Source: Aphrocallistes beatrix (lineage: Eukaryota; Porifera; Hexactinellida; Sceptrulophora; Aphrocallistidae). From it: a stretch of 64,000 nt of DNA. The stretch covers positions 1-64,000 of the forward strand of contig OY725502.1 of the NCBI GenBank assembly GCA_963281255.1, written 5' to 3'. Positions 5,871 through 57,096 of this stretch are shown here, piece after piece (the first letter of the stretch is position 1; each line of letters opens with the position of its first letter). Under the pieces are notes generated by a model that saw nothing but the letters and a program-made list of their open reading frames with translations, was not told where the DNA came from and made no database searches. The position numbers and the translations under genes are program-made.

Positions 5871-6690
5871 TTTTAAATCTTTCGTAGCCGGTGGAAACGG
5901 TTTAAGTCTCCGAACTCTGGATTGGCTGGAAAGAATCCGATTAGATTGGGCTCAAATATACAGAATGGACTGTTTTGATAGTTTAGAAAGGATTCTAAAT
6001 TGCCACGAAATCTTATTCAAAGACAACTTGTTAAATCTCGAAAATGAGCTGGGATACCTTCAGTATTAGACTTGGTAATCTAGCTTATTTTCGAGATTTA
6101 ACATCAAATATTGATGGCGGTTTGGCTCATATACCAAATTTCACTGCTAATAATGATGATGGTAATCTAACTCATAAAAGAAAAGGTTCATGATATTTTG
6201 GTTAATCTGCTTACTTATCTTTTGAGATGATTACGAACCCTTCCAAATAATGGGAACAGTGTCAGCAACACTTCAGTTTGGAACATTTTATAACAAAATA
6301 TAAAACATACACAAAATCAACTTTATACTTACATTGTGTCAATTATATAGTATACAACAATATTTATATATGTACATATATGAATACACAGCTCAAAACG
6401 TCTGATTAGGATCTTGATGAAGGTCTTCGGATCTTAATGGAATGAACATCTTAGGCTAAAAATAGCAACATTGTTTATACATCATAAACCCAACATTTTA
6501 TTTTAGTGTTTCCTATACTAATAATAATAGGATCCTACACAATAGCATAGGTGCAGAGTTCTAAATTAGTGATGTGCCATAACTTCACTCTGCCAACAGT
6601 TTAGAAGATAATGACTTTAAACATTTTTGTATTGATGGAACAGTATAAGTGGACTTGTACAAAATCATCAAGATTATGCAGCATTGTGAT
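5871..6690. other. Intergenic spacer, nothing recognised
   Basis: AT-rich spacer between the satellite and a dispersed repeat. A short open frame to 6069 is mostly read-through from the satellite frame. No splice-site pairs or protein similarity were recognised. Confidence 0.5.
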
Positions 6691-6694
6691 TTTT

Positions 6695-6905
6695 AGTGCA
6701 GCTCCTAGTATAGGAGATGCCTTATGTCATGATCAGTGTGCGACGTCCGTCTGCTCGCTCCTGGAAATTCTATTGGACCAAATTCACCAAATTTGGACCC
6801 CACATATTCCTTATATGGTGGAGATTTGAACCTGGGTCCAAATTACGAAATATTTTCACACCTTTCCACTTGCTCTCGAATAAGGTGATAAAAGTGGACA
6901 TATAA
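6695..6905 (+). mobile_element. Dispersed repeat, AGTGCAGCTC family, partial copy
   Basis: Starts with AGTGCAGCTCCTAGTATAGG and continues with CCGTCTGCTCGCTCCTGG, CTATTGGACCAAATT and GGAGATTTGAACCTGGGTCC. The same blocks in the same order lie at 41738-41880. The 3' terminus found in the fuller copy (GAGCTGCACT) is missing here. No coding capacity; likely a non-autonomous element. Confidence 0.75.
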
Positions 6906-9263: not shown

Positions 9264-9271
9264 CGCGCTAT

Positions 9272-10249
9272 CTTGTAAACAAAAGAAAACAACAATTAAA
9301 CACTTCCTTTCAGGGTCCGTGAACTACAGCTGAATCTCATTCATCTTGTTTCACTCAACGAACGAATAATCGAGGCAAATACTATGCGGAGACATCTGAG
9401 GTATTATGTGCTGTGTATAAACAACCAAATCTACATATCTGAGAGAATGGAGGCAGTTAGCATTATTTATAGAGCAGAACTGCTGAGGTAAGGCAATAAA
9501 CAGAAACGTATTCCAGCTAAGCTGCACTAATCACGACTAAGGCTACTCTGCAATAACTGAGATGACGAAACCCGACTCAATACAAACGCTACACTCAGAT
9601 GTCAGCTTGCGAGTGATATTCATGTCTTTTGCTGAGAAAGTTGAATCAGTTCAAGATACGCCAACAGTTAACATTTCAAAATTTGAATCTCATTAGAAGT
9701 TTCAACCAAGAAACTAAGGCCACTGTTAATAGTAAACTTATTTCAGTCCCAAAATTAGTGGGATGCGTGCGGTATTTCATTATCTCATCATTTGATAAGC
9801 AATCAAGGCTGATAATTTTAGATGTAACTGGATACAAACATTTAATTCACGCATTTAAGTCCCAATAACCATGGATATTCGTATATTGAAATGCTAGTGT
9901 AGCTGTTAACTCATTCAATAGTAAACACGCCTGCACCTGGATTATAACGGAATATTAATTGGAATAAGGACATACGCGATAGTTAATGTTGTGCGGACTG
10001 AAGAGCTGAAACAAGTCTAATCAACAGTGGCCTCAAAGTGGACTTCGCTATGTTTTTTAAAATCCTAAAATGATTCTGAATGACTAGAATGAGGCTTTGA
10101 CTCAGGCGTTGTGAAGTGAACTCTACGACTGGGACAGACAGGATGAGTATGGCGTGTTAATAGTGTAAATAGCTGGCATAGGATGGATAAGTAGAGGCCT
10201 AGGCTACAAATCTAACATAAAAATGTATAAAATGTCAGTCTAAAAGTTG
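9272..10249. other. Spacer between MAPRE 5' end and ERM 3' end
   Basis: About 1 kb that should contain the MAPRE promoter and first noncoding exon (minus strand) and the ERM 3'UTR. The short open frames show no recognisable protein. No repeat was seen. Confidence 0.5.
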
Positions 10250-13835
<3,586 letters not shown>

Positions 13836-15898: not shown

Positions 15899-16109
15899 TT
15901 CTAAATTTATTAATCTGATCGTTAGAGATAAATCAGGTTGTAAGGAATGCGGTGTAAGGCGCCCTAGCACAGTTCTGAAACACAGGAATGTTCTCAATAA
16001 AGTTCTCTCAATCAAACAGAAATACAGAAGTGAATCTGGTTAAACTTCCATTAAATATACAAACATATATACTGCTCATTACAATAGCCAATCAAATTCT
16101 GGAATAAAG

Positions 16110-17442
16110 TCAGTACGTTTTGCTGCATCCGAACAGTTGTTTGAACTTGAAATCCATCGCTAAAATAAACAAATTTGAAAATAATAAAGGGAGGCACTCA
16201 TTTCAGGATTGGCCACTATTCTATCGCACAACTTAAAACCTCAGAAGGGATGGAAGTGTGCTTCAAACTTGTGAGAATTCACATGTCAAGTTAAGCTATT
16301 GAGTCACTGTACTTAAGCTATTGAGTCACTGTACATTGTAGAGTCATTCTTACTAATTTAACTGTTGTTAGGGAGACATTGCGGCCGGACACCAACACTC
16401 ATTTTAGGAATGTGCACCTATTCTAATATTAGGATCACAGATCTAATATTAGAATAGGAAGCCACTAACAACTCAAATCAGCGATTCAGAACACATTTCC
16501 ACTAATCGTCACCTAAACTTTTGATGAACGTCATCATCAGCTGGTAGTTCTGTCCGGAGTCGCACAGGTCTGTGGCGAGGGTAGAGATGGAGAAGCCCTA
16601 AGGAGAATTCATTCTGAACGCATACAGCACAGAACCAGGGATGAAGAATTTCCTCATTGAACTCACCCTAACTTTGCTGACGAGTGAGTAGTTGGAAGCG
16701 ATCGCGAACTGAATGCTGGCATTGGCGCTCAATCCCACGTATCCCGCCTACAGAGACAGCCAATCAGATGCCGCTATTCTCCCAAGCAGTCAGCTGACTC
16801 ACCTGAATGATGAACCTTACGCCCGACTGCCTCCGCTCTGTGGTGAGGTTGAGCAGCTTCACCAGAGAGAACTTCCCGTCCGGACCACCTAGAGACATTT
16901 CATTGGTCAGAATGGACAATCGAATGCAGGAGGCTTTCAGTGCTTTGGCAGTGAGAATCGTTTGGAAGCTAAGTTCAGATCTGAGGTTTTCTACATTCTA
17001 AGTTCTGACATAATTCCACTTTCTACCTCGCAGACATTGGCATAGTTTGGTGGAGCAAATCTGCTTGGTTGATTTTCCGGAGATAAGTTATAATTCTTGG
17101 TTCAGTTCATAAGAACAATTCTATAATTAGAATAATGTATCCATGGCTCAGCCAAATACCTTTGTTCAAGTTTGTCTCCATGATCTGTGTGAGGTCCTCG
17201 CTTTTCTGATCTAAAAAGGAAACAACAACAAACACGGTTTGCATATTTTCATTTCTTGTCTACTCACCGACTTCGAACTCCAGACTGCAGCAGGCATTGC
17301 CTATAAATAGAACAATAAACAAGTAAACTATAAATAGAACATCTGAGAACTCACCGCAACTCCCGCAGTCGGTCTGGGCTCCCAATTGACCAATCAGAAG
17401 ACAGGAAATCGAGATAAAAGTAAATATTTTAAAAGCTAACAT
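16110..17442 (-). CDS. Small secreted protein, family not recognised
   Basis: Seven short exons (minus): 17442-17355, 17300-17268, 17210-17160, 16888-16803, 16747-16667, 16597-16513 and 16159-16110. Every junction keeps frame and the chain runs from ATG to TGA, giving 157 aa. It starts with a clear signal peptide (MLAFKIFTFISISCLLIGQL), then a cysteine cluster CGSCGNACC and the segments GGPDGKFSLVKLLNLT, FIIQAGYVGLSANASIQF and FSISTLATDLCDSGQNY, ending GCSKTY. There is no second membrane segment, so it is probably secreted. Two N-glycosylation sequons (NLT, NAS) are visible. I recognise no domain family. The closed seven-exon chain argues for a real gene. Confidence 0.78.
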
Positions 17443-21497: not shown

Positions 21498-22731
21498 ATT
21501 GTTGTTGTTTACTCTAGCGCGTGTTCGTGTGGGACCTGGACGAGACGAGCATCATCCTCCTGTCGCTGCTGAACGGGGTTTACGCGGGGAAGTTCAGACA
21601 GGATTCGGCTGCCCTGAGCGACATCGGTTTCCAGATGAACGAAATAATCTTCAACCTCGTCAACTCCCACTTCTTCCAGGCCCAGCTAGAGGTGAGAAGG
21701 TAGCGACACTCTGGCGACACATTTTTAATTTGCGTTTGTGTCTAGGAATGCGATCAGGTGCACTTCGAAGACGTGGCTATCGAGGACAACGGAATTGACC
21801 TCAGGTATGTACCTCATCTCACTCGTAATCTGATTGGCTGTTTAAGAGCGTCTTTATAGCTCGTACGACTTCACCACAGACGGATTCTCATTGGCTGAGC
21901 TGCAAACCGCTCCGATGCACAAGAACTCCACTTCCACCGCCACTCCCGCCACCAGTGCCACTCCGTGCGCCACCAACACCTCTCCCTGTGTGGGTGGTCC
22001 CAGTGTCGGCGGCAGGACTACCCAGGACTGGTGCAAGAAGCTGGCCTATCGCTACCGCCGCATCCAGGAGATCTACACCAAGTACGGATGCTGCGACCTG
22101 GAGAGTGAGTGCTAATTTTAGAATTGCAATATCCTAGCGACAGCTTCCACTCAATGGAATTCTCCAAGTGAGTAACGGAGGGTAGAGTTCTATATTTAGC
22201 ATGGTCCCTAGGTCTGCTGGGGCAGGAGCAGTACACGGCGTGGTACAAGCTGCTGTGCAAGCTGGAGGGGATCACGGACCAATGGGTCAGCCAGGCGCGC
22301 AAGTGCCTACTCCACATCCAATCAACGCCCGGCTACGCGAACATCCTCGTGAGCAGCTCCCCGCTCGTTCTGACGCTCGGGAAGTGTCTGCTGTTCGGAC
22401 TGAGCAACGTCTTCCACATCCAGAACATCTACTCCGCGCACAAGGCGGGCAAGTCCGCCGTCTTCGAGCGCCTAATCTCCAGATTCGGGACCAAGTGCAC
22501 CTACGTCAGCATCGGACACTCTCCAGAGGACGAAGAGGCCTCCAAAAAGGTAAGCACTGCTAAAAATAGAACTCTGTACATACACCTGTAGAGAATAGAA
22601 CTTCCGGAGCTAACACCTCTCCCGTACTAACGTAATAATTCTAAATATAGCACAACTTCCCGTTCTGGCGCGTGACGTCACAGAGCGACCTGATCGCGCT
22701 GGAGAGAGCTCTGCAGCTGCAGCACCTGTGA
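18368..22731 (+). CDS. EYA: Eyes absent transcriptional coactivator / HAD phosphatase
   Basis: EYA partners SIX proteins and dephosphorylates tyrosine substrates. Exons: 18368-18377, 18563-18715, 18941-19116, 20636-20933, 20989-21181, 21234-21405, 21518-21691, 21746-21804, 21860-22104, 22212-22549 and 22651-22731; in frame, 632 aa. Residues 1-334 are Ser/Pro/Tyr-rich and poorly conserved, as in the EYA transactivation region. The EYA domain fills residues 335-632 and opens with RVFVWDLDETSII; the catalytic DxDxT motif is intact (Asp340, Asp342, Thr344). Further matches are EECDQVHFEDV, SSYDFTTDGFS, LAYRYRRIQEIY and HNFPFWRV, with the stop just after, as in the family. Two oddities: a roughly 40-residue Thr/Ala/Pro-rich insertion after TTDGFS, and GHSPEDEE where bilaterian EYAs have GDG followed by acidic residues. 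A poly(A) signal AATAAA lies at 22836. Confidence 0.96.
19833..20003 (-). mobile_element. pogo/Tigger-like MITE, TCGACTCCGCTTAAT family (copy 1)
   Basis: Ends TTAAGCGGAGTCGACTG next to TA; the left end is eroded (GTCGGCTCCGCTTAAT). The interior (ATCTGTCAGAGGACATTTTA, ATTAACCGAAAATATT, CCGGTCCTACCAAAAGTGGC) is the reverse complement of the element at 58209-58363. It lies in the long EYA intron 3. Inverted repeats starting CAG with a TA target site point to the Tc1/mariner-pogo group. Confidence 0.85.
21461..21510. repeat. (TTG)n microsatellite in EYA intron
   Basis: About 16 TTG repeats immediately before the 3' splice site of the EYA catalytic exon. The poly-leucine frame it creates is not coding. 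Confidence 0.9.
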
Positions 22732-26368: not shown

Positions 26369-27527
26369 TCAGTTGCACTTGCAGCCTTTGCTCTTGCCAG
26401 CCGCGTCTCCATTCTGGATGGGGAAGGTGGGGCTACTCACCGAGTTCGCCTCTGGAGTCTGAATGAGAGAAATGACGTCATCCACGCGGCTATTTATAGC
26501 AACCGTTCTATTTTTAGATTTTATAGCTCCCTTATTGCTCTATTTATAGTACACTCACCTTCTGAAGGATTGCCCTGGCCAGACTCTCGAATGTCTACGG
26601 ATAAAAATAGGTGTTAACATACTATATATAGTATCACATTCCTTTGACAACTCACGGTATCTATGTTGATGTTAGACTTGGCGGAGGTTTCGTAGAAGCG
26701 AATGCTGTACTCTCCGGCGATCTAAAAATAGACACAGACATCAGACACGCAGATGTGTCGCGTGGCACAGGACACAATTTCTCACCTTCTGTCCCTGGTC
26801 CTTCGAGACGACTCGCTTCGCCTCCATGTCGCACTTGTTCCCGATCAGCGTCCTCTCTACGTCTGGAGACGCGTGCTACATAGAGGTATAAGCTCACATT
26901 CCAATCACACAGACCGGTCACTAGGGTGCTTTTTGGCGCTATTTATATATATTTGAATTTCCACATCTCATTTTCCTAAAAGATTGGATCCGCGCAACTC
27001 ACAGTTTCGATGTTAGCCAACCATTTGGCGATGTTGTCAAACGATTTCTGTTGCGTTATGTCGTACACTAGGATGATACCCTAACAGAGTAACCAGATCG
27101 GTTAGATGGAATGTTGCTAATATGACAAACGAATAGACAAAAGCATACCATTGCTCCTCTATAGTAGCTAGTCGTGATGGTGTGAAATCTCTCCTGACCA
27201 GCTGTGTCCCTATATTTAGAATGAGACGCAGTTGATACTATATTTAGAATAAATTAGTTATAACAGAAACATACCATATTTGTAACTTTATTTTCTTTCC
27301 GTCCAACTCAATTGTTTTGATTTTGAAATCAATACCTTTGAAAGTAGAATAAACAATAAACAATAAACAGTGAAGTAAACAAACAACAACACAAGCTTAC
27401 CTATCGTGGAGATGAAGGTGGTGTTGAAGGCATCGTCTGAGAATCTGAAGAGGACGGAAGTCTTTCCCACTCCGGAGTCTCCGATCAGGAGAATCTTGAA
27501 TAACAGGTCGTAAGCCTTCTTTGCCAT
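26369..27527 (-). CDS. RAB10: Rab10 GTPase, proximal-tail form
   Basis: Small GTPase of the secretory/recycling pathway. Exons (minus): 27527-27401, 27335-27275, 27209-27149, 27080-27003, 26875-26786, 26721-26656, 26594-26559 and terminal exon 26458-26369; 202 aa. The protein begins [19 protein letters not shown]. The G motifs are intact: GDSGVGKT (16-23), effector region [21 protein letters not shown] (from 63), NKCD (122-125) and ETSAK (150-154). The N-terminus and [20 protein letters not shown] are diagnostic of the Rab8/10/13 group and closest to Rab10. This tail ends GKSKGCKCN, giving a CxC-type prenylation site one residue from the end. The distal alternative tail is listed separately; it fits Rab10 better. 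Confidence 0.95.
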
Positions 27528-28868
27528 TCTAGTACAGCTGAAGATTACAATGTTAATGGACTAGGGATATCAGATAACAATGCAGGATTAAATGAGAGAT
27601 ATATTTAGGAACTCTTGTCCGTAAGACAATAATAGAACGCAGCTATTTATATCTCATGGGACGGAGATACAAAACTGGATGTTAGGAATTCGTAGCGCAG
27701 CATGAGCATTGGTAGAATCTTACATTTACTCAAGATTATGTTATGAAACTGAAATACATAACAACGCAAGGACGTGATTGGATTGTAATAATAAAATATA
27801 GAACTTCTAAGGAACTAGACATAGAGTTCGCATATCAGAAATCGGAAATAAACAAATCATGTGTCAACAACAACAACTCTACTCTACACAAGCAATCTAA
27901 TTATAAATACTCACGCCATAGTGTCTAATAATAGCCACAGATCACTAATATTAGCTTCAATCACTAATATTAGCTCCTCCATCAATGGAGTTATATAGTA
28001 GCGGTGTATGCATACTTGTAACAGAAACCATCACGCATGTGATACAATGGCAGAGTATGGAGATTAGCGTAAGCAGTGAAACGATTCAGATTTGCACACC
28101 CGTGCTAAAAATATTCAGAAGCGATACTATTTATAGCTGACGGGTTAATGTAGGCCTAATAGAGCTGTTCGGGATTTGTGTCATATTGCAACTATTCATG
28201 TCAAATGGAGCAGTGAAGCAAATCAGAGAACAAATTTCTTAAAAAGCTCAACGTGACTGTACGAATCAATTGATTACGCCTACGATATATTTACACAATT
28301 CTGTGTAGACTGAACACGTGACTTCACTTGCACTCTAGAAGTTAGCCATAGCGCCATTGAACATCAACACGACAAGCTCTGTAGCACTGAATGAAGCTAT
28401 GTGCAGAAATGGATAATGGCAGTATTTGTTAATGGTTTAAGTTCAAGCCTCTGACTGAATTGTGACGTCATCGTCACTCTAAAACTAGAAATTCCAGTTT
28501 TCGAGCATAACTCTGTCAGTCAAGAGAGTATCCAAATGCTCACTTGAATAATCAAATTAATTACAAGTACTAAACCATGAAATGTACCACGGACATGCAG
28601 AATAACGATGACGTCATCATTACCTTCAACGTTGACAACGTATTTAACCATAAAAGGCACCCGTAGGCTTCTGACGCAAAGTATTGGTCAGTGACACACT
28701 TCAAGCGCGCCTGTTTACATTTAAAATATATGTTTATTTACAATATACGTGTGAAATGTCAATAAAAGATGAATATACACAGCTCTAAATCAGTAGTTCT
28801 ACATGCGATAAAGAATTGCACAGCACTGAAAGAATAAATAAATATAAACATGCGATGAGCGGAACATT
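27528..28868. promoter_or_regulatory. RAB10 upstream / TRPA 3'UTR region
   Basis: Head-to-tail spacer on the minus strand. It should carry the RAB10 promoter and the TRPA 3'UTR, whose likely poly(A) signal is AATAAA on the minus strand at 28738-28733. Two TGACGTCA sites occur at about 28462 and 28611. No exon or repeat was recognised. Confidence 0.5.
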
Positions 28869-31800: not shown

Positions 31801-34800
31801 AAAACGTGAAGAAGTTAGTGCTGGCATATGTGGCATTCACGTATCCCTCTCTCTCCAGGAACGTCTGGTTGTACTGGAAGAAGGAGTGGCAAGCAGTATC
31901 ACTCTTCCCGACCATTCCAGACTCCTCGAACCGTATCTTGGTGATGTAGAAGGTGTAGAAGACTTCGGTTATTAGCAGTAGCATGAAGAGGAAGAACGGA
32001 GAGATGCTGATTGTGTAGTAGAGACGTCCGTAAGTCCTCCTAGAGAGCTCAGTTCAATCTTACAACTAACATGTGCAGTCCTATCAAGCAATCAAAACCT
32101 AATTATAGATCTCCTCAAAAAGGTTAATTCGAGATCTCGTCTGGCCAATGAGGAGTCAGTCTTATCATCACACATGCCAGTGTACGAGAAGGAATTTTCA
32201 TTGGACAAAGCGGGCAATCAAATACATCAAAAATATAAAATTCGCTGAGGATTTGCTTTTTTTATTGTTTACAACCTAATAGATTTATTCAAGAATATAC
32301 ACAAACAAACAAACAAACAAACACTTCCGTACCATTTGTAGTCGAGGTATCGCTTGGTGACTGGGTGAGTCAGCAGATTGATGCGGTAGTTGTCAATCAT
32401 CGTCTAACAAATATTAACTTGATAAGTGCTATTAATAGAATTTGACTACAAATCTGACTGGTCCGGATTCTTACGAGACCAAGAGGATTAGTCTCACTTC
32501 CAGTTGACATTGGAATGTGAATAATAAACACAAAATGACGTCACTCAAAAGCGTTCTAGTTCTCTGCTGCATCATCTTTTGTGCTATTTTTAGTAACAGT
32601 CCTAGTCTATTCGGAGATTTCGTGTTCGACGATTCCGAAGCGATTCAAGGCAACGAGGACGTGGCTGGCAACACTTCTATTCGAGAAGTGTTTGGGCACG
32701 ATTTCTGGGGAAACAACATCCGTTCTAAACGCAGCCACAAGTCCTATAGACCCCTGACTGTCCTCACATTCCGATTCGACGCCTGGTTATCAGGGGGACT
32801 GGACCCGACCGTGTTCCATGCCCACAACATTCTCCTCTACGTAGTGGTGGCACTTCTGTACAGACACGTGGTGGAGAGGTGAGAATAAGACAGCCACTTC
32901 CTCGTACGACGAACCCTCAGACATTATTCATGTATGACCTTAAAAGGATATTTGTACATCTGTAGCTATATTTAGATACGCGTGAGTTTGTATCTATGGA
33001 ATGTAAGGTTTCCCACAGAGTTAATTCTTATGCGACCAATCAAATTCATTTCTCTACAAATTCAGTTAAAATTAGAATTTGTTCTGAAGTGGCAAATGAA
33101 GATTTTAATCCGACTCTGACCTGAACGATGAGAAATATGTCTGATGCCGCTGTTCTATATTTAGACTAGGAATAATGGAAACAGCTGACTTAACTCCGTT
33201 CTATTTATAGACTGAGTGGCAGCAAGGAAACAGCTGATTGGTCTGCGCTTCTCTTCGCCGTGCATCCCATCCACACGGAGGTGGTGAGTGGCGTGGTGGG
33301 CAGGGCAGAGATGACGTCATCGCTCTGCTACCTGGTCTCCATTCTCAGCTGGAGGAACTCCTTAAAAGGAGATGTGAAGGGCATCACGTGGTTGCTAGGG
33401 GCAGGAGGAGTGGCAGGGATCGGAATGTTGTGCAAGGAACAGAGTGTGACAGTGCTAGGGGTGTGTGCATTATGGGAGTTGATGCTCCTGTGTGCGGGGA
33501 AGAAGGGTTGGGGTGTGAGGTGGAATTTGTGTCGATGTGTCGTGTATGGAGGCTGTGTCGTGTCCATTTTGTGGCTGAGGTGGACAATAATGGCCGGAAC
33601 CACCCCGACATTCCAGGTGAGAGTGGATCAGAGGTGTGAAAACATGCCATACCTATTTTACATATTCTCTCTAGAAAGGTGACAACCCAGCCTCCTTCGC
33701 AGCTGATTGGCTGACGCGGACAATGAACTACAGCTACATTTGGGCGCTGAATGCATACTTGCTGGCGCTCCCTTTCTGGCTCTGTTTTGATTGGTCAATG
33801 GGCTGCGTTCCCATCTTAGAGACAGTTTGGGATATCAGGAATGCAGCTACAGCCGTGCTCTGTCTATTCCTAGCGACTCTAGCTTGGAGATGCGCCAGGG
33901 AGCTCAGGAATGCTAGGAATGTGGAGCTGACAGCTGGAGTGGTGGCGGTGCTAGTTCCATTCTTTCCTGCCTCAAACGTTCTGTTCCGCGTCGGATTCGT
34001 GGTGGCGGAGAGGATTCTATTTTTAACCTCGATGGGCAGCTGCTTCTTGGTGGCACACAGCGCGCCACGTGTGAAGTGGTGCAGAGTGGGTCTGGTGTCG
34101 CTGTGTGTGCTATTTCTAGTCAGGTCTCATAGACGGAGTTCTGATTGGGTGGGCGAGGAGGCTCTGTACAGGAGTGGACTCGACGTCTGTCCTAGCAACG
34201 CCAAGGTGCATTACAATGTGGCTAACGTGGTGTCGCGGAGTGGCCAGGTGGCAGAGGCGGAGGAGAGGTACAGAGAAGCCGTGAGGTGAGTGATCAGCTG
34301 ACTGCAGTCACTGAGATATATTTAGCCACTCAGTGCATATTCACAATACATAGAGCACACTTCTGAAATTTAGGTTTCCCCAAAAAGAAAAGACTACGAA
34401 TGCATTTCCTGGACACTAATTGACCATTACGCTGATTCTGATTGGTTACAATTCAGTGATTGAGTATAGTTCTATATACTTGGTCCGTTGCATTAATAAC
34501 AACAAACAAATGCCCTAATCTAGTGGCCGGGATAATAATAGTATCAAGTTTCTAACCAATGATCTCACTGATGGAGAGTTTAACTTCTAAGAGGAAGGTC
34601 TTATGTTAACCACAGTAGTGACACAATAATGCACATTTCACACCTAGGCTGTCCCCCGAGTACGACCAGGCCCTGAACAACCTGGGGAACCTGCTGAGGG
34701 ACAAAGGGCAGTGGCAGGAGGCGCACGGGTGTCTCTCTGCAGCGGTTCGAGTCTCGCCGGAGTTCGCCGCCGGTTGGATGAACAAAGGAATCGTGGAACT

Positions 34801-36839
34801 GAATCTGAAACTCTACGACCAATCAGAGCAGAGCCTACTCAATGCCATCAGGTTCAGGAAGAAATACTCTGACGCCTACTACAACCTTGGTGAGTGGACG
34901 GATACATTGGAATGTTAGAAATAGACGCACCGTCTACGGAGATATTTATTGTTGTTACAACAGTCACGGAATGGATTCTATATTTAGAAAATACAAATTA
35001 GTCGTTAATTCCAAACTTCAGTTCATTGGCCAATCAATTGATTATACAAAAGTGTGAAATGAGTCAGCTGTTTCTAGGCAATCTGTACCTGGAGACGGGA
35101 GATATGCAGATGGCAGAGCGGGCATTCAGGGACACAATCCGACTGAAGAGAAGACACAAAGAGGCGTGGGTGAATTTGTGTCTAAATTTAGAAAACTCAG
35201 CTCAGCTGCAAGAAGCGGAGTCAGCTGTTGACGAGGCTATTTCCGTCTTCCCAGCTGACCCCCACTTCCTGTACAGCCGCGGGAACCTCCTGGGCAAGCA
35301 GAGGAGGTTCTCGGAGGCAGAAGAGGCCTACCTGGGCGCCATCCAGCTAGAGCCACTCAACCACAAATTCCACGGAAACCTAGGTCAGATAGCAACGCTG
35401 AGTTCTGATTGGTCAACCCCACTGAGTTATTGGGGCTGTGTATGGATAATTTCACACCTCTGTAGGTGTCCTGTACCACTTGTGGGGGCGGCTAGACCTG
35501 GCGGAGGAGAGCTACAAGCGGACACTGGAGTTGGAGCCCGGTGACCTCACGACATGGAAGAATCACAACAAACTAGCCAACAAGCGAAGAAGCGGCAGCC
35601 AATGAGAATGCAGCCTTCTGATAGTCTGTGTAGAGACACGTGACTGAACTGAGTATTGAATCTGACTGTTTGTTTATTCAGTAAATAAGTTTGTTGTAAC
35701 AACTCACGTGCAGGGCGTAGAGAGAGCTGCCCTCGTAGTCGTATCTGCTCCTGAGGAGGTTCCTCAGGGAGTAGTGCGACTTTATGCGAGACCATAAGCT
35801 AGGCTTTGGAGGCTTTGGCTCTTTCTCTGATCCCTTCCCTACGCGCCTATTCTCTTCCCTCGAGAATGTGGACAGCTTGAAGAGAGCTGCGAGAATGGAA
35901 GTGAATATTTATTTATTCCTTAATTCTTGAAATTATCCTCTTAAATTGCTCGCTCTAATTAGCAGAGTTGAAAGATGCTATTTTAAGACATAACCATTTT
36001 CAAGGTTTAAGCGTATTCTCACGAAATTTTGCAATAATTCATGCTTGAAAATCGTTTCAAATAATTTGTTAAGGAAATAAGATATGTCTATATTCAATTA
36101 TTCTTATTTATTATATATATATATAATTGAACTAACGTTTCTGGTCTGAGAAGTGTCGCTTGTGGCTGTTCGTGGTGGCAGAGCGGTACGGGCGAGTGGC
36201 TAGAGAGCTGGCTCTATGGAATTTATCCATCGAATCACAACCGCCAATCAGGAAACTGAACTCTACTCGCTCCTACAAATAAACAACAACAACAATAAAT
36301 ATAATCAAACAAACACACCGCATTCCGTCTACAGTAGAACCTCACCATGGCAACGGAATTCAAATTATTAGTGTTGAAGATTAACGCGGTTTCTCTAGAA
36401 GTGGCAGAAATTACGACACAATTTCTATCTCTAAGTGGACACAACACTGTATGCTATAAATAGGATTCAGTTCTAAATATAAACTCACGAAGTAGTCGTC
36501 GTGATCTATTGGCAGAGGAGACTTCTGAATCGCTCTTTCTAAGATTATCTAAAAATAGATATACAATCAGCTGTGTTGGTAAGAGGTGTTGAGTACTGGA
36601 ACTAAGGTTGGAACTAACTTTGGAGAGGTCAGGGAGGTGTTTGATGAGTGAGACGAACGGGGGGACAGTTGAGGAGGAACAGAACGTCATCACTTCGTTC
36701 CACCTGAACAACAAACAAACATCACATACACCAATCAATTCTAAATATAGCAACCAATAAGAACAACAAAAATCTGCCTTCACAACAATAGGAACAGACA
36801 AGATCAAGTATTTATCTAAATAACAACAACAACAACAAT

Positions 36840-36878
<39 letters not shown>

Positions 36879-39236
36879 AACAACAACAACAACAACAACA
36901 ACAACAATAACAACAATAACAACAACAACAACACAGTACACCCTCGATAGTCCGTACTTAGCCAATCCGAACACTTCATTCTTAAAATCTGAACACAAAA
37001 ATATAATTTTATTTGCTTTGAACGAATGTTTATAAACTTGAATCTATTTCAATAAGATTGAGAAACCTCGTTAACTAAGCAATCATAGCCAATAATATCC
37101 TTAATATTCTAACAATACAAATTTATTATAATTAATTTCCTATCGAATTAGTGTTATTTCACTAATCGATCATTGGAACAGGCTGTTCGGATTAGCGAGG
37201 ATGTACTGTAACAACAACACAGAACTGTACCTGTCATGGTCGAGGACCTCCAAGACGAGGATCTGCTCCTTCATCTCAATGGCGATGTCGAAGAAAGATT
37301 TCCCCGCGCAGTCCCACAGAAGGACGCTCCCGACGTTCAGCAGCCACAGGACTGTGTCCTTGTGTCCGCTCCGGGCGGACAAATGCAGCGCCGTTTCTCC
37401 GCCCGAGTTCTGCCAGTCCTTGATGGCGTTGTTGGCCTGAGGTGTGAACGGAAGTAAAAGTGTCAATCACCGCGGCATAGAAGCTATACACAGGCAATGC
37501 AGGCGTTTTATTTTTGGACCAGGGATGAGTACTCAAGCTTCTCACATCACAGAAAATAACTGTTTCCTGTGCAAGATAGGCATCGAAGTGGAAATAAGCA
37601 TAACAAAACGCCTGAATCTGGAGTCAAAATACGTCTCGTCATCATAATATTGCGCAACAAGCTATTCTTAGTACAAATCTACGCCGTTTAGGCATTGACG
37701 TGTACTATTAGTGAATGGGATTTGAGCAGTTCGATGCCCATATAAGGAAGAACCGAGGGAGTACCTTGTAAATGAGCTGAGCGCACTTGGTGTGTCCGAA
37801 CTGGCACGCGAGGGCGAAGGGAGAGTCGAGCGAGAGGGACTTCGTGATGTGGGCTCCTTTCTGGAGCAGCAGCCGCACGAGGTCGTAGTGCCCCTTGCTG
37901 GCGGACATGTGGAGGGAAGTGTGGCCTTTGTAGTCCACGTCATTCAGCATCGACCCCCAGACTCCCTCCTGCAGCAGCTGGTACCCCATCGCGTAGGACC
38001 CGTGGAAGCAGGCGTAGTGGAGTGGAATCTAAACACGTCAGCTGTGAATATCAGCTGTGAGTTATCAGCTGTTACTATCAGCTGTCAGTTGTGAACAGAT
38101 TGGTAGCGGAGTTCAGTGTTAGAATAATCTAACGAGACTGCTCTTAACAGCTGTGGAGAGTGGTCTTAAGTTAGCAGATACAGTCAGATGCTACTGGATA
38201 ATCTCATCTTACAAATCCTATTGGGCTTGTAGCCTCTTTCCTGGCAAAACCCGATTTCTACTCATGGGTTGGGTTTATCTAGGATTTTCCAGTCCGGCAC
38301 TTTTTTGAATGTGATAAGTTATATGCACCCAAACAGGGGCTCATCTTCTAATTTCAAGGGTCGTGGCAACCAAATCGAATCAGTCTTCGGCCTCGGACAA
38401 AACCAACTAGCACCTGTAAGTTCCGGACGGGCGCCTAGATAAACCCTGTGTGTACGGAACACTGCGATTCTATTGGCTGAGCTACTGACTCTGCGGTTTC
38501 TGTCGTGCATGTGCATATCCGCCTGGAAGGCTAGGAGCATCTGCATCGTCTTGAAGTCGCCCTGGCCCTTGCAGAGCACGTGCAGGGGGGTCTGTCCAAT
38601 GTCGTCGGGGATGCGGACCAGGACGGACTGAGTCTCATCCCGTCCGTAGCTGAGGAGAGCTCGCGCCGTCTTCCAGTGGCCCTCCTCGATCGCCACCACC
38701 AGCGCCGTCTGCCCCTTGTGGTTCTGGGCTGTGGCGTCTGCGTCCTATAAATAGCACAGCTGACATTCCATTGAGTCATATTCCTGGCTGGGACTTATCC
38801 AATGGAATAACTGATTCAGTCATGCGTCAGTCTCGTCTAAAATTCTGAGCTTTTCAGCGAAAAAAATGCCAGATGCACATCTACATCACTAAGGAGAACT
38901 GCATACCATATTTGGTAAGAATCGGACTGTCAGGTTTCTCGAGATGGCACGTACGGACTCACAAACAAGAAAGAATCTAAATTAAGAACAGATCAGCTGA
39001 TACCTGAGTGAGCAGGAGCTTGAGCACCTTGTTGGCGCCCTTGGAGGCGGCCACGATGAGCGGGGTGTTCCCGTCGCGGTCGATGGCGTCCAGGTTTGCG
39101 CCGTAGTTCTGCAGGATGGTGGCGGACTGCGCGTGGTCGTAAGTGGCGGCGTAGTGGAGCGGAGACTTGTCCTGCGCGTCTCTGATGTCCACCACTGACG
39201 GGTCGTAGCCTGGAGACGCAAATGTGAGAATGGAAT

Positions 39237-43211: not shown

Positions 43212-43217
43212 CGACAT

Positions 43218-44198: not shown

Positions 44199-44236
44199 AT
44201 AACCAGAACTATATTGTGTTTGTTTGTTTGTTTGTC

Positions 44237-45068: not shown

Positions 45069-48000
45069 ATGTCTTTCAATCCGTACCAGATCGGTGATGT
45101 AAATGGTAAGCACACTACTTCACACCTCTGCGAGAGTTGTTATTTATTCCTTTCTAATTTTAGATATAAACTCAGCTGGTTATAAGTCTACAGGCCCACC
45201 CATAGCAACCACAAGAATGCAATCATCTTCTAACTATCCCCCACTTCAACCTACCAATCAGGTTCCATTCCATAACGTTAGTCAACCACACAACTCTTCT
45301 ACGCCTACCTTAAAACCCAAGTATCCTGCTGACGTAGGAGTGAGACAGAGTTTGACACCTCAGCTTCAACCCAAGCACTACCCACACTCTGTCCTGGACA
45401 ATCAGATGTCAGCCTTGTCTGTCTCTCCTCTAGCCAATCAAATTCCCACCTCCCAGCCAATGGCATTCCAACCTCCTCCCACCTCTCAACCAATGGCATT
45501 CCAACCTCCTCCCACCTCTCAACCAATGACATTCCAACCTCCTACCTCTCAACCAATGACATTCCAACCTCCGAACTCCCAACTAATGGCATTCCAACCT
45601 CCTCCTACCTCTCAACCAATGACATTCCAACCTCCTCCCACCTCTCAACCAATGACATTCCAACCTCCTACCTCTCAACCAATGGCATTCCAACCTCCTA
45701 CCTCCCAACCAATGACATTCCAACCTCCTACCTCCCAACCAATGACATTCCAACCTCCTACCTCCCAACCAATGATGTCTCAACGTCCACCCACCTCTCA
45801 ACCAATGACATTCCAACCTCCTCCTACCTCTCAACCAACGACATTTCAACCTATCGACTCTCAATCAGTATCATTTCAACAGCTTCCTTCACAACCAACG
45901 ACATTCCAAAATCTTCCAACCTCCCAACCAATGACTTTTCCATCTTCACAACCGACATTCCAACACCCTTCGTCACAACCAATGTCATTCCAACCTCCTC
46001 CATCTGCACAACCAACAGGATTCCAACCTCCTCCAACCCAACCAACAGGATTCCAACCTCCACCACCTACACAGACAATGCCCTTCCCACAATCGACCTT
46101 CCAATCCGTTCCTGCCCCACAACATTTCGGATCAAACCAGATTCCTCAGAACCAGCCAATGGGATCAGCTGCTCCGTTGGGTCAGTTCGGAGCGCCGCCA
46201 ATCACTTCTCAACCTAAAGTGACACCTGATTCCATTCCTAGCGTGGTGAGTGAGTGCAACTCATCTCTCTTATATATAAGTGCACTATCCCTACTAACCG
46301 GTTCCTTTCATTCAAACTTTTGTGCATACTTTATTAACCAATTACTTCGTTCTAAACTCAGCTCTGTTACAACGAATTCCATCTGTTCTTGACATGACTG
46401 AACACATGCCAACCGTCCCTATCTGTTGTCTAGGTTGAAATTCTTGAGACTGAGAAGGAGAGATGGGTATCGAACGAGTACCTCACTGGCTCTAGAACCC
46501 TGCCCCCTGGGTCTCTGATCCCCTGTCCGATCAGAGACACAGGGAACTGTTCCCCTCGGTTCATCCGCAGCTCTCTCTACACCCTCCCTACCTCGCCAGA
46601 CATGATCCAGGAATCCAAACTCATCCCAGGAATCATTGTGCAGCCTCTAGCTGCCGACCCTGACAACCCTAAGGTGATCATGGAATGTACACCTTAGTGT
46701 TTACAGCATACAGCGATAAAACTTTTCGTCCTATTTATAGTTACCACTGGTAGACCACGGCCCGTCCGGACCAATCAGATGCAAGCGTTGCAAGGCCTAC
46801 ATGAATCCATTCAACGCATTCACGGGCGGAGGCGCCAACTACGACTGTGTCTTTTGCGGAATAACCAATGAAGTGCCGAGTAGCTACATCCAGTACTGCG
46901 ACGCAGCAGGCAGGAGGATGGTAGGTATAAATAGGACTCATCTTCATTCGTTGCTTTCTTTCATTGGTCGACCAATGGAATTATTGGGAGTGTTGCAGGA
47001 CGCAGGAGAGAGACACGAGCTGAGTCTGGGCAGCTTCGAGATGTCCGTCACGAAGGAGTATAAAAGGAACCAGAGGGACGGGCTGCCTCCTGCCATCGTC
47101 CTGGTGCTGGACATCTCACAGCGCAGCTACAACAACGGCGTAGAGGGCTTCCTCTCTTCGCACGTAGCGGGTGAGTGATTGGATGAGTATAGGTGTCTGT
47201 CTGATATCAAACAGAGTCAGGTGACTGCTTAATCAGGACACTTTGGTCCCGGATATTTTGTCCCGATTAAGCGGAGTTCCCAATTAACCGATGAGTATTA
47301 GCTTCTATGTAAGGGAACCATTTCGTTCCTGAGACTTGTCCCGATTAAGAGTTCACTGTATCTAACTAGGTACAATGGAGAGTTTGCATAATTATGAACT
47401 TCTCCCCTATTAGCTATAACCCCGAGTTGCTAATAAGCGAATTCTACCGTAGTTATTTCCAATGTGCAGAACTGAATTTGATATCAGACTGGTCTGTGCG
47501 TGGATGCTTGTTGCCTCCACGCACAGACCCAATTGAACAACTTTTCGTAACGTTACCAACTGTGAGCATAACTCATGGAGACTGCTTATATACTTCCGCT
47601 GTAACTAACCGACCAATCAAATGCAGGACTGCTGGAAGCTCTGCCTAAGGACGAAGAGACCAGAGAATCTCCCATGGAAGTAGGCCTAATCGCCTACGAC
47701 ACTCAGGCATACTTCTTCAACCTTTCCGTTGCTACGCCGCTCGTGTACGTGCTCACCGACACGAGCGAGCCTTTCCTACCGGAACCTGCCGGCAGCTTGG
47801 TTCCGGTTGCCCAGGCTATAAATAGTATCAAGAGCATCCTGGAGCGGTTTCCAGTTCTGTTCCCTCAGCGCAAGAGTGGCGCCTGTTTGGGAATAGGCGC
47901 CAAAGCGGGCTTATCAATGCTGAGTGAGATGCGGCGCGTTGGTGAGTATAAATAGATCTCATTCCTGGATTTGATTGGCTAGTCACCGTGCGCTGTGTAG

Positions 48001-51860: not shown

Positions 51861-52072
51861 GCTCCGATCTGAATTTAGGATTATTGTTTGCTGTTGTTTG
51901 TTTGTTATTATTATTATTATTGATGTGGAAAGTCTGTTTACATTATTTGGAATTCGCTTTGCCTCATCATCATGCTACGTTAACGACACTGAAAATGTCT
52001 GGTATTCATTCTAACAACAATAATCCCATAGATATGTATCTGCCTGCCGCATTTGATTGTCCGTTTTTGGGA
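51861..52072. other. SEC24 3' flank
   Basis: Presumed SEC24 3'UTR with an (ATT)n tract; no clear AATAAA before the minisatellite starts. Confidence 0.4.
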
Positions 52073-52800
52073 TTAGCTACAGCTGCCTTTCATTAGCTAC
52101 AGCTATCATTCATTAGCTACAGCTGTTATTCATTGGCTACAGTTGTCATTCATTAGCTACAGCTGTCATTCATTAGCTACAGCTGTTATTCATTAGCTAC
52201 AGCTGTCATTCATTAGCTACAGCTGTTATTCATTGGCTACAGCTGTCATTCATTAGCTACAGCTGTTATTCATTGGCTACAGCTGTTATTCATTGGCTAC
52301 AGTTGTCATTCATTAGCTACAGCTGTCATTCATTAGCTACAGCTGTTATTCATTGGCTACAGTTGTCATTCATTAGCTACAGCTGTCATTCATTAGCTAC
52401 AGCTGTTATTCATTAGCTACAGCTGTCATTCATTAGCTACAGCTGTCATTCATTAGCTACAGCTGTTATTCATTGGCTACAGCTGTTATTCATTGGCTAC
52501 AGTTGTCATTCATTAGCTACAGCTGTCATTCATTAGCTACAGCTGTTATTCATTGGCCACAGCTGTTGTTCATTGGCTACAGTTGTCATTCATTAGCTAC
52601 AGCTGTTATTCATTAGCTACAGCTATCATTCATTAGCTACAGCTGTCATTCATTGGCTACAGCTGTTATTCATTGGCTACAGTTGTCATTCATTACTACA
52701 GCTGTCATTCATTAGCTACAGCTGTTATTCATTGGCCACAGCTGTTGTTCATTGGCTACAGCTGTTATTCATTAGCTACAGCTGTTGTTCATTGGCTATA
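52073..52800. repeat. 20-bp E-box minisatellite downstream of SEC24
   Basis: About 36 tandem copies of a 20-bp unit, TTAGCTACAGCTGTCATTCA, with variants GG for AG (making ATTGGCTAC) and T/C changes. Nearly every copy keeps CAGCTG; copies with ATTGG also carry an inverted CCAAT box. Only occasional units lack a base, so the period is steady. Confidence 0.96.
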
Positions 52801-53693: not shown

Positions 53694-56600
53694 CTAATCA
53701 AGACCTCTATGCGTGACAGAGTACATGTCAGCTGTCTGTTCAAGAACCTTGACAGGTTCAGGATCAGGTTTGGAGAGGTTATTATAAAACATGTCAAGTG
53801 TCTTGAAATGTTTGAGTGTTGAGATGAGTCGAGTGAGATAGACACAAGAGTTGGAATTCAGTTTACAATCCCATACGTCTAAACGTCTCAAGGTAGGATG
53901 ACACAGCAGTCCTCTGCACAGACATGACATTCCTGATTCTGAGAGTGGAACACTATCTAGACACAAATAGAGTAACCTGAGTTTACTCACTGCAGTGCTC
54001 AATGGAATGACGTCATCAGGTTGTAGCTCAGTGTTGTATAGCTCAATCTGCACTAAGCTAGAACAGGAACTCAGAGATGAGAACACTTCTGCACAGCTGT
54101 TCAGTCCTATTCTATGTAAATAACGCAACCTCAACCCTCTGAGTGTGTCTGCACTAGCACTCAGCAGTTGTATGAGATGGAGCTTAAGCTCTGAGTCTCT
54201 AGGTTCTTCATATGTAGATAGATCCAAGTGTTTGAGGTTGGAGAGTTTGCTGATATAAGGTAGCAGTGAGTAGGTATTTGTACCAGCTATTAATACTATC
54301 TCCTGTATGTTGGATTGTTGAGTTAGGAGAGTTTCTAGCAGCTCTATAGAGTCAGTAGGAATACTGTAGAGGTGTAAACCTGTCAGCTGTGCAGTATTGA
54401 GACATGGAAGTAAGGTCTTGTACTCACTGGAGTCACTGGAGGCACTGGGATAAAAGTAAAGGTTGTCAGTAGAAATCAGCTGATTGGCTAAATATTGCAG
54501 ACTCTGAGGTGTTAAATTTGTATTAAATAAACACAAGCTTGAGAAAGGTGTGAAAATAGAAGTAGGTGACAAATCAGCTGATTCAGTGGTGGTGAGGTCA
54601 CATGAGAAAAGTTCTAAACTAATCTTAGTGTCAGATGGCGGCTGACACTCTCGGATGGCGTTACTGTACTCAGATAGAGTAGAATAGTCTTGATCATACA
54701 TCTCCACAGCTAAGTACCTGAGAGAACAGGAAGTCAGGCTAGCTAGCAGTGCTCTGAACTGAGTTAGTGGGACGTGTTTTATATCGAAGTATATCAGCTG
54801 TATAGAGTGGAGGAGTGGTAGAGATTTGAGGAAGCACTCCCACTCATTGGGAGGAGTGGCACTTTTGAGATAGAAACAAGGTGACTGAGGAAGGAATTTA
54901 TCGAAATCAGAAAATGATTTTGAGATAGAGGCACAGCTGGTTTCAAACAACAATTCGGACAATGACACGAATTTATCAGTGAAATTCGTCCATCCCATTA
55001 GCTCAGGCATATTTGTACCGAAGTAGTTGAGTTGGTAACACATCGGCATATCCTGCATAGACACAGGAGGTGTCGGGTGGTGCTTGTAGAGGATGGTGAG
55101 GACGTGACTCGAGTTCTCTGCCAACAGACCACACAAGAAGCGGATGACCATCTTGAAAATTGAAAAGTTGTCTGCGGAATTGGAGATATAGCGACAACTC
55201 AGACACTGGTCCCTCCACGATTCCTTCCTCAGCCAGACAGCACCCACGAACTCCTGAATGGTGAGGTGTGAAAAGGACCACACACGAGTAATGCCGCCCA
55301 GCTGATCCCTCTTGAAGTGCTCCTCCGCTAGACCCAAGCACTGGCAGGACCTCTCCTCCTTGTCCAGCTTGAGGAGGATGTCCTTGGAGGAGATCAGGTC
55401 TCTGCCGTAGACGCCCAGGTACGCCAGCTCCCCGATGCGGTGCAGGCACTCCAGCACGGACGCGTCCAGGAGTGTCAGCTCCTTCTTCTCCGCCATCTCC
55501 GTCAGTCCCATGCGCGACAGCTGCCGCCGGATCAGGTAGGCGATGAGGTGCGAGTAGAGGCGAGTCAGGGTTTGCGCGCTCAGCTCGTCGCTACCGCGGA
55601 TCAGGGCGGCGAAGAGAGAGGCGTTCACGGGCACCAGGGATAAGTGGCTCACTTCCTCGTGAAGGTAGAAGATCCTTTGGAGCTGCGCTAGCTTTCCCTT
55701 CCCGGGCAGCTGGATTCTGAAGTAGAGGTCTCTGTTCTCCGGAGAGAACCCCAGCACCTGGTAGAACCTGTCTATCCGCAGGTCGTGGGCGGAGGAGATG
55801 GAGGTGTAGGCCCCTGGACGGCTGGTGAGGACGATGGTGGACTGGGAGAGGGTCTTTCGGGTGAGCAGCAGGTGCAGGAGGGTTTGCTGGAAAGGAACCT
55901 CTTTGATGTATTCGTCCATGCTGTCAATGATCAGCAGCAGGCCCTCTCCGTCGGATTCGAGGAGGTGCTTTGCGAGTTCCTTCGGCCAACTCGGCCCGAC
56001 TGGCATTGACAGACACAGCCAGTCCTGGATGAAGTCTCCGTCCACGGCCTTCCCTTCCCTGTCCCGCTCCATCTGGTGCCAGTCCGCATCTCTGCAGGGA
56101 ACGGAAATGGAATACGAAAACTTGGCCAGTTCTCCCCTTCCGAATCGGAGCGAAGTCCTCTGACAGAGAAAACTCTTTCCACTCCCCGGGTTCCCGATCA
56201 GACACCATATCTCCGGTTGGGATGGATCGTATTCGGAAATCTCTTCGGTGAAATCGACTGGAGTTACGTCAATTTCTTTTTTGGCGATCTTGCGTAGGAA
56301 GGCAATCTCGCTGTATGTGGTTTCGTCCTGCGGATCGACTGGACGAGGTTTCTGCTTTATGATCGTTAGCGGGACGTAGACTGACTCGATCGAGACTTCC
56401 TCTTCGTCGTCCAAGTGCTGCTTCACTTTCTTGTGCTGAGTCACGAGGAACTTCCTCAGTCTCAAGTCCCAAGTCTGGAGTTCCTTATCGTCTGAGGGGA
56501 GCTCTTTCCTGAAATTCTCGCTGAATTCTTCATCGCTCATTTCTCTGAATGACGGTTCGAGCTTTCGTAGCTGTTCTGCGATATCGTTGCGCTTGACTGC

Positions 56601-57050
56601 TTCCATTAGCTTAGCCAGATTGGTGAGGTCTTTGCGTATGAATCCCTTTCCCGCTAGTTTCGAGATGTTCAGATCGATCGTGGCTTCTTTGCTGATGCCT
56701 TCAACGCTGGTTCCGATTATCTCCCATTGTGCAGTGCTGATGTCTGTTTTCAGGATTTTGAGGAGTTTCTGCATGGGAGTGGTTGGGCCTCGAGTGGCAA
56801 TGGACAGCCACCCAATCTTCCGAGAAATGGGCACGAGATCAGGCCGAGTGGCATGGATGCCTCGATAGATGGCATTGGGGTCTCTGTTCTCCCAATTTTT
56901 CATAGAGCTCAGGAATGTATGTCCGTCTCTGGCGTTTTGGAACAGAGCTGAAGGAGGATTAAGGTAGGACACGAGCTGTTTCACATCGTGAGTAGACAGC
57001 TTATCTGCAAGATCTGCAGTAGCTGCGATGTCAGACAGACTAGCTTCCAT
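53694..57050 (-). CDS. NLR-type receptor: death-fold, NACHT, LRR
   Basis: Cytosolic pattern-recognition receptor of the NLR class. One uninterrupted exon of 1118 aa; only a 5'UTR intron is suggested by CTATTTTTAG at 57061. Residues 1-90 and 95-170 are two helical segments resembling death-effector domains (second: DLTNLAKLMEAVKRNDIAEQ); which death-fold subfamily is uncertain. A short linker with VYVPLTIIKQKP precedes the NACHT domain: Walker A GNPGSGKS (286-293), Walker B LLLIIDSMDE (371-380), sensor VLTSRPG and the winged-helix motif FSHLTIQEF (593-601). Leucine-rich repeats run from about 760 to the end (LKHLDLSTYEE, LRRLDVWDCKLNSNSCVYLT). By family, ligand sensing by the LRRs releases NACHT oligomerisation and death-fold signalling. 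All motifs are intact. Confidence 0.92.
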   Translation of the reverse strand: MEASLSDIAATADLADKLSTHDVKQLVSYLNPPSALFQNARDGHTFLSSMKNWENRDPNAIYRGIHATRPDLVPISRKIGWLSIATRGPTTPMQKLLKILKTDISTAQWEIIGTSVEGISKEATIDLNISKLAGKGFIRKDLTNLAKLMEAVKRNDIAEQLRKLEPSFREMSDEEFSENFRKELPSDDKELQTWDLRLRKFLVTQHKKVKQHLDDEEEVSIESVYVPLTIIKQKPRPVDPQDETTYSEIAFLRKIAKKEIDVTPVDFTEEISEYDPSQPEIWCLIGNPGSGKSFLCQRTSLRFGRGELAKFSYSISVPCRDADWHQMERDREGKAVDGDFIQDWLCLSMPVGPSWPKELAKHLLESDGEGLLLIIDSMDEYIKEVPFQQTLLHLLLTRKTLSQSTIVLTSRPGAYTSISSAHDLRIDRFYQVLGFSPENRDLYFRIQLPGKGKLAQLQRIFYLHEEVSHLSLVPVNASLFAALIRGSDELSAQTLTRLYSHLIAYLIRRQLSRMGLTEMAEKKELTLLDASVLECLHRIGELAYLGVYGRDLISSKDILLKLDKEERSCQCLGLAEEHFKRDQLGGITRVWSFSHLTIQEFVGAVWLRKESWRDQCLSCRYISNSADNFSIFKMVIRFLCGLLAENSSHVLTILYKHHPTPPVSMQDMPMCYQLNYFGTNMPELMGWTNFTDKFVSLSELLFETSCASISKSFSDFDKFLPQSPCFYLKSATPPNEWECFLKSLPLLHSIQLIYFDIKHVPLTQFRALLASLTSCSLRYLAVEMYDQDYSTLSEYSNAIRECQPPSDTKISLELFSCDLTTTESADLSPTSIFTPFSSLCLFNTNLTPQSLQYLANQLISTDNLYFYPSASSDSSEYKTLLPCLNTAQLTGLHLYSIPTDSIELLETLLTQQSNIQEIVLIAGTNTYSLLPYISKLSNLKHLDLSTYEEPRDSELKLHLIQLLSASADTLRGLRLRYLHRIGLNSCAEVFSSLSSCSSLVQIELYNTELQPDDVIPLSTAVSKLRLLYLCLDSVPLSESGMSCLCRGLLCHPTLRRLDVWDCKLNSNSCVYLTRLISTLKHFKTLDMFYNNLSKPDPEPVKVLEQTADMYSVTHRGLD

Positions 57051-57096
57051 TCTATGTAGAATCTAAAAATAGAAACGAGAGTGAGTCATTGACATA

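What the first reader, a model, noticed from the sequence alone, without database searches (positions are those of the whole stretch)
6400..57070. Palindromic word CTAWWWWTAG scattered throughout and used as intron 3' ends
Reading by eye I find roughly 45 copies of CTA(A/T)4TAG (CTAAAAATAG, CTATTTATAG and similar) where two or three would be expected by chance. The word is the MEF2 consensus. It also forms the exact last ten bases of at least 12 of about 75 reconstructed introns (ERM, the secreted gene, EYA, RAB10, TMTC, TRPA, SEC24), plus the NLR 5'UTR intron. Either a splice-acceptor preference favours it, or a repetitive or regulatory word has been recruited at acceptors. I know of no description of this coupling.
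Basis: partly seen in the sequence, partly recalled or inferred. Interest (0 to 1): 0.72.

Follow-up and report, generated by a model that had tools for sequence, protein, structure and literature searches.

The report
Short DNA words mark chromosome ends
A ten-letter DNA word that looks like a binding site for a muscle-type gene regulator is packed into one end of nearly every chromosome of this unnamed small-genome animal, together with other regulator-like words, and its appearance at the ends of introns looks mostly like a side effect of that packing.

Summary
The word is real and commoner than reported: 67 copies of CTAW4TAG in the window, against 1.6 in dinucleotide shuffles and at most 3.5 under Markov models. 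Spacer length and half-sites are specific.

It is a local feature. The window is one end of contig C16 (4.16 Mb) in a 100.5 Mb assembly. Density is 3-18 per 10 kb up to about 134 kb, then mostly 0-2. Of 75 close word pairs mapped genome-wide, 69 lie within 600 kb of a contig end, on 17 of 19 large contigs and never at both ends of one. An unrelated pair, CCAATCAG-CAGCTG, falls 39 times at the same ends and twice at the opposite ends. On C16 the zone is also richer in GC and predicted introns.

Coupling to intron ends is weak. Word-blind gene models give 7 of 69 TAG acceptors against 72 of 789 other intronic TAGs. Reading by eye I support nine in the window, roughly a threefold excess, in a set that was not blind.

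Best reading: MEF2-type sites in a regulatory, intron-rich terminal domain, one per chromosome. A pairing-centre-like role is not excluded.

The parts
6456..57072 (.). 67 copies of CTAW4TAG, spread over introns and spacers
   Evidence: expectation 1.6-3.5
17301..17354 (-). 54-nt intron of the secreted/NHL gene with two copies of CTATTTATAG 27 bp apart, the second forming the acceptor
   Evidence: sequence; donor GTGAGT; frame only, no homology check
27210..27274 (-). 65-nt RAB10 intron with two copies of CTAAATATAG 28 bp apart, the second forming the acceptor before DTAGQERF
   Evidence: alignment to Rab10 runs across the junction
26722..26785 (-). RAB10 intron ending in CTATTTTTAG
   Evidence: downstream exon recognised from recall
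11921..12434 (-). ERM gene intron ending in CTATTTATAG
   Evidence: alignment to radixin across the junction
22105..22199 (+). EYA intron with CTAATTTTAG 7 bp after the donor and CTATATTTAG as acceptor
   Evidence: EYA2 alignment
38745..39003 (-). TRPA intron ending in CTATTTATAG
   Evidence: TRPA1 match
46674..46740 (+). SEC24 intron ending in CTATTTATAG
   Evidence: Sec24D alignment across the junction
33201..33210 (+). word at the probable TMTC acceptor
   Evidence: frame; the gene finder chose an AG 12 nt downstream
36549..36558 (-). word at a possible TRPA acceptor
   Evidence: frame only; the gene finder read it as coding
12550..12559 (-). copy inside a coding exon of ERM (CTAAAAATAG, reads LKIA)
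47816..47825 (+). copy inside a coding exon of SEC24
16423..16452 (.). two copies of CTAATATTAG 20 bp apart
27925..27973 (.). three copies 19-20 bp apart between the RAB10 and TRPA genes
57063..57072 (-). word directly upstream of the NACHT-LRR open frame; possible 5'UTR acceptor
   Evidence: not tested

Best explanation
CTAW4TAG here is a MEF2-type binding word. It is one of a set of regulator-like words (CCAATCAG, CAGCTG, ACATTCCA, AGGTGTGAA and others) that fill non-coding DNA of a special terminal domain, roughly 0.1-0.6 Mb long, at one end of nearly every chromosome of this animal. Shown: the enrichment, spacer and half-site specificity, symmetric TT...AA flanks without longer shared sequence, the inner boundary on C16, the one-ended distribution, co-localisation of an independent word pair, and higher GC and predicted intron density in the C16 zone. 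Inferred: that MEF2-type and other transcription factors bind these words, so that the domain is dense in enhancers and promoters, many of them inside introns of bystander genes such as RAB10 and SEC24. The coincidence with intron ends is mostly a by-product: the word ends in TAG, is dense in introns and near their edges, and predicted introns show only a weak pyrimidine tract, so some copies serve as acceptors, just as AGGTGTGAA overlaps some donors.
For: 67 copies vs 1.6 expected. In the C16 zone the word is 24 times Markov-3 expectation, outside it 2.1 times; W3 and W5 spacers 0.6 and 0.3 times; TTCTAW4TAGAA 185 times. 137 copies share only TT/AA flanks. Boundary near 134 kb. 69 of 75 word pairs within 600 kb of an end, 17 of 19 large contigs, never both ends; CCAATCAG-CAGCTG pairs 39 hot vs 2 cold ends. 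Zone vs cold C16: CCAATCAG 66/3, CAGCTG 135/33, ACATTCCA 51/16, AGGTGTGA 38/12. Copies in introns 16.7 and intergenic 10.5 per 10 kb, 4.2 in predicted CDS. Introns 2.65 vs 0.87 per kb CDS. MADS-box matches exist. AGGTGTGAA overlaps 6 of 146 predicted donors.
Against: Housekeeping genes (RAB10, SEC24, L22e) lie in the zone, and homeodomain matches avoid rather than prefer hot ends: 2 of 19 at hot ends, 7 of 19 within 600 kb of the opposite ends. Weaker MEF2 forms are only mildly raised (TTAW4TAG 2.3, TTAW4TAA 1.8 times), less than a graded binding preference might give. TGACGTCA is equal in zone and cold on C16 (21/19), though its thinned search leans to hot ends (8 hot, 1 cold, 9 elsewhere). 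TAAACAA is commoner in cold DNA (210 vs 83). Word pairs were found on C15 at 0.87 Mb, nearer the end opposite its hot end, and in the interior of C1, C3, C6 and C10. C1 shows no hot end. Eyeballed acceptors show a modest excess that a pure by-product does not need. No binding, expression or chromatin data.
Confidence: 0.5

Rival explanations
1. The words are an architectural or meiotic signal: a protein binds many dispersed copies at one end of each chromosome and so marks that end for pairing, nuclear-envelope attachment or compartment formation, as ZIM/HIM-8 motifs do in C. elegans.
For: One hot end on 17 of 19 large contigs, none with both; copies in introns and spacers of unrelated genes, housekeeping ones included; same broad layout as pairing centres (PMC9071541, passages).
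Against: Several unrelated words share the domain, and the zone differs in introns and GC too; one word serves nearly all chromosomes; C1 has no visible hot end; no meiotic data.
Confidence: 0.17
2. A regional by-product: high recombination or another mutation and selection regime at one end of each chromosome raises GC, keeps introns and lets many short words accumulate, without a dedicated function of CTAW4TAG.
For: GC, predicted introns and many words change together on C16.
Against: The word is AT-rich while the zone is GC-rich; the spacer and half-site specificity is hard to get from a mutation bias.
Confidence: 0.2
3. A splice-acceptor preference: the spliceosome favours CTAW4TAG as the intron's last ten bases, and this drives the excess.
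For: Nine supported acceptors in the window; about 9 of 39 TAG acceptors vs 72 of 789 other intronic TAGs, p about 0.01; density is highest in the last 10 nt of predicted introns.
Against: Word-blind models show no excess, 7 of 69; most copies are not acceptors, and 42 of 138 zone copies fall in predicted spacers; density is also raised after donors; 0 of 15 acceptors in adjoining cold DNA.
Confidence: 0.08
4. A dispersed or tandem repeat carries the word.
For: Some copies do lie in repeats elsewhere: a tandem array at C3:2.28 Mb and a dispersed element on C1, C2 and C27.
Against: Flanks beyond 2-3 bases are unlike among 137 zone copies, and ten W4 types occur.
Confidence: 0.03

Closest known systems
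MEF2 (MADS-box) binding sites, YTAWWWWTAR
   Same: Core, W4 spacer and flank preference as recalled; MADS-box genes in the genome; the YTAWWWWTAR consensus occurs with MEF2 in three listed papers (listing only)
   Different: Concentrated at one end of each chromosome and in housekeeping introns; degenerate forms barely enriched
C. elegans meiotic pairing centres (HIM-8/ZIM motifs)
   Same: Short motif dispersed over a terminal region at one end of each chromosome (PMC9071541, passages)
   Different: One shared word on nearly all chromosomes, with several other words, more introns and GC; no pairing evidence
Genomic regulatory blocks (recalled concept)
   Same: Regulator-like words in introns of housekeeping genes near EYA
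   Different: The domain follows chromosome position, not one target gene

Membership tests
MEF2 binding site | Core CTA(A/T)4TAG with fixed spacer | tested here: met
   W4 24 times expectation; W3 0.6, W5 0.3 times
MEF2 binding site | Tolerates T for C and A for G at the outer positions | tested here: inconclusive
   TTAW4TAG 2.3 times, TTAW4TAA 1.8 times in the zone, but ATAW4TAG 3.2 and GTAW4TAG 2.5
MEF2 binding site | A MADS-box factor encoded in the genome | tested here: met
   PF00319 at C18:343 kb and C10:4.54 Mb; MEF2 type vs SRF type not resolved
MEF2 binding site | Bound by MEF2 in vivo | not testable with these tools
   no binding data
C. elegans-type pairing centre | Motif enriched at one end of each chromosome | tested here: met
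   17 of 19 large contigs, none at both ends; C1 without, C7 weak
C. elegans-type pairing centre | Small set of motifs, each serving one or two chromosomes | tested here: not met
   the same word on 17 contigs
C. elegans-type pairing centre | Region required in cis for homologue pairing | not testable with these tools
   needs genetics or cytology
Splice-acceptor signal | Over-represented at acceptors relative to other TAGs | tested here: inconclusive
   none in word-blind models; about threefold in a set corrected by eye, not blind

The most novel reading that the evidence does not exclude
Each chromosome of this animal carries a single polar domain, written in one shared code of short words headed by CTAW4TAG, that tells the cell which end is which for pairing, anchoring or compartment formation. 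It would be a second, independently evolved system of the pairing-centre kind, built from transcription-factor words and shared by nearly all chromosomes.
Probability: 0.17. Interest if true: 0.9.

Novelty: new variant of a known kind. Interest (0 to 1): 0.63.

Why it matters
One-ended, motif-marked chromosome domains are familiar from C. elegans pairing centres. A one-end-per-chromosome domain seen on 17 contigs of another animal, dense in regulator-like words, is a clear pattern that binding assays, Hi-C, recombination maps and comparison with relatives can test directly. It also shows that words found at splice sites must be judged against regional word density.

Tried and rejected
Rejected: base composition. 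Repeat or mobile-element origin (flanks); ten repeat-borne pairs were dropped before the count (five tandem pairs at C3:2.28 Mb, five copies of one dispersed element on C1, C2 and C27), plus six pairs found by two searches. RNA stem between neighbouring copies: several close neighbours are identical rather than complementary. Hot zone as homeobox neighbourhood. Xenoturbella bocki as the species: the paper gives 43% GC and 18 large scaffolds (passages of PMC11521371), while most cold C16 samples have 30-38% GC and there are 19 large contigs. Dicyemid: minicircular mitochondrial genes and introns near 30-40 bp (passages of PMC6543705 and PMC6736024), unlike the 17,996-base contig with COX1 and a predicted median intron of 337.

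Led nowhere: thinned CCAATCAG search, dominated by one repeat-like family; thinned single-word search, noisy and with repeats; donor-anchored profile, too strict and then inconclusive. The gene finder missed four word acceptors that I read by eye and merged TRPA with the opposite-strand TMTC gene. Paper searches: (no hit); none of the papers listed was, by title and abstract start, about such a domain or about MEF2 words at acceptors. Only 10, 10 and 8 titles of 19, 502 and 385 were listed, so this is no proof that nothing is in print.
Full report
1. The observation. The window holds 67 copies of CTAW4TAG, all between 6456 and 57072. Dinucleotide shuffles give 1.57 (largest 6 in 100); Markov models of order 0-5 give 1.3-3.5. 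Outside the satellite CTAW3TAG occurs once and CTAW5TAG not at all. Over the wider C16 zone the word is 24 times its Markov-3 expectation, single-position variants lie between 0 and 3.2 times, and TTCTAW4TAGAA is 185 times. Flanks are T-rich before and A-rich after, with nothing shared further out (137 copies). So it is a short protein-site-like word, not a piece of a repeat.

2. Where it is. The window is the first 64 kb of contig C16 (4.16 Mb) in a 100.5 Mb assembly of 28 contigs. Genome-wide there are 11,838 copies against 4,740 of the reversed control, about one per 8.5 kb, far thinner than in the window. Seven consecutive 10-kb stretches from 64 to 134 kb hold 3-18 copies each. The next three and ten spaced samples hold 0-2 each, except one with 6. 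GC goes from 0.38-0.42 to 0.30-0.38.

3. One end per chromosome. I mapped close pairs of the word: N8 spacing (23 pairs), CTAAAAATAG followed after 2-14 bases (44) and CTATWWATAG pairs 18-26 apart (24). The reversed-pattern controls gave none. I dropped ten repeat-borne pairs and six found twice, which leaves 75. Of these, 69 lie within 600 kb of a contig end (23% expected by length); 17 of 19 large contigs have them and none has them at both ends. The six others are one each on C1, C3, C10 and C15 and two on C6; the one on C15 lies at 0.87 Mb, on the side opposite its hot end. Some pairs overlap or lie in local duplications, so the nominal probability (2e-16) is only indicative. The unrelated pair CCAATCAG-N0-14-CAGCTG (67 places, control 1) falls 39 times at the ends already called hot and 2 times at the opposite ends; the rest lie inland, or on C1 (2) and C7 (10), which have no pre-called hot end. 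Eight of the ten on C7 lie at its left end, seven of them near-identical in sequence. A thinned TGACGTCA search gave 8 hot, 1 cold and 9 elsewhere.

4. What else marks the zone. Comparing 126 kb of zone with 130 kb of cold stretches of C16: CCAATCAG 66 vs 3, CAGCTG 135 vs 33, ACATTCCA 51 vs 16, AGGTGTGA 38 vs 12, but TGACGTCA 21 vs 19 and TAAACAA 83 vs 210. I recall the first five as NF-Y, bHLH, TEAD, T-box and CREB words; no call names them. Microsatellite-like AAACAAAC is also higher in the zone (128 vs 13). Predicted intron density is 2.65 per kb of coding sequence in the zone (12 segments) and 0.87 outside (13 segments). Single-frame genes outside include a POT transporter and a queuine tRNA-ribosyltransferase. 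Animal-type genes occur in both parts, with Torsin genes in each (ten reading frames per call).

5. Introns. I wrote a small self-trained gene finder whose acceptor model sees only the base before AG. Its models give recognisable ERM, EYA, SEC24 and TRPA1 proteins; RAB10 needed an exon added by hand. Eight of 146 predicted zone acceptors end in the word, and 0 of 15 in the adjoining cold 30 kb. After removing overlapping genes, 7 of 69 TAG acceptors carry it, against 72 of 789 other sense TAGs in introns, 79 of 830 antisense TAGs and 85 of 1484 intergenic TAGs. Word density is highest in the last 40 nt of predicted introns and also raised in the first 20-30 nt. Reading by eye adds acceptors that the finder missed (17301, 27210, 33201, 36549), giving nine supported in the window. 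Against an estimated 39 TAG acceptors in those genes the excess is about threefold (p 0.01); the set was not blind and the 39 is my estimate. AGGTGTGAA likewise overlaps 6 of 146 predicted donors, so other words of the zone fall on splice sites too.

6. Reading. The best account is a regulatory, intron-rich terminal domain, one per chromosome, with CTAW4TAG as its MEF2-type word. The genome has MADS-box matches at two places, both at hot ends (C18 343 kb, C10 4.54 Mb). Against a simple developmental-gene domain: housekeeping genes lie in it, and of 19 homeodomain matches 2 are at hot ends and 7 within 600 kb of the opposite ends. The layout also resembles C. elegans pairing centres, where 12-base motifs bound by HIM-8/ZIM proteins mark one end of each chromosome (PMC9071541, passages). 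But one word serves nearly all chromosomes here, unrelated words share the zone, and no meiotic evidence exists. I keep that as the bold reading at 0.17.

7. Limits. The GC and intron contrast was seen on C16 alone. Gene models rest on a weak codon signal. Right-hand contig ends were not inspected.

Noticed in passing
window 1-5726: A 159-bp satellite, 36 copies at 100% match, forms the contig start; the first 120 bases of many other large contigs look related by eye.
   Followed up: partly
window 52072-52798, 10860-11319, 45446-46073: Tandem arrays: a 20-bp unit containing CAGCTG, a 42-bp unit in the ERM gene region, and a repeat coding for TSQPMTFQPP-like units in the SEC24 frame.
   Followed up: no
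C16 zone 5.7-134 kb, predicted introns: Strand-biased words in introns, sense/antisense: GTTGTTGTT 45/1, TGTTTGTTT 54/23, TGATTGG 44/23, GGAATGT 31/13, unlike CTAW4TAG subtypes.
   Followed up: no
C16 zone, predicted donors and acceptors: AGGTGTGAA overlaps 6 of 146 predicted donors, and TTCACACC lies at 3 predicted acceptors.
   Followed up: partly
L041-L048 (C16 250 kb to 2.0 Mb) and L001-L030 (C1): Long reading frames without introns, often in same-strand runs, suggest intron-poor, perhaps operon-like gene arrays.
   Followed up: partly
whole genome: Most of the 130 listed kinase matches cover nearly the whole domain in one open frame; only 127 of 460 candidates were scored, so this favours intronless genes.
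   Followed up: no
whole genome: Only 19 homeodomain matches (24 candidates), very few for a bilaterian; 7 lie within 600 kb of the ends opposite the hot ends.
   Followed up: no
window 53694-57062: Single-frame NACHT-type gene of 1122 residues next to the zone's last window words; another NACHT frame lies at L034:3-1208.
   Followed up: no
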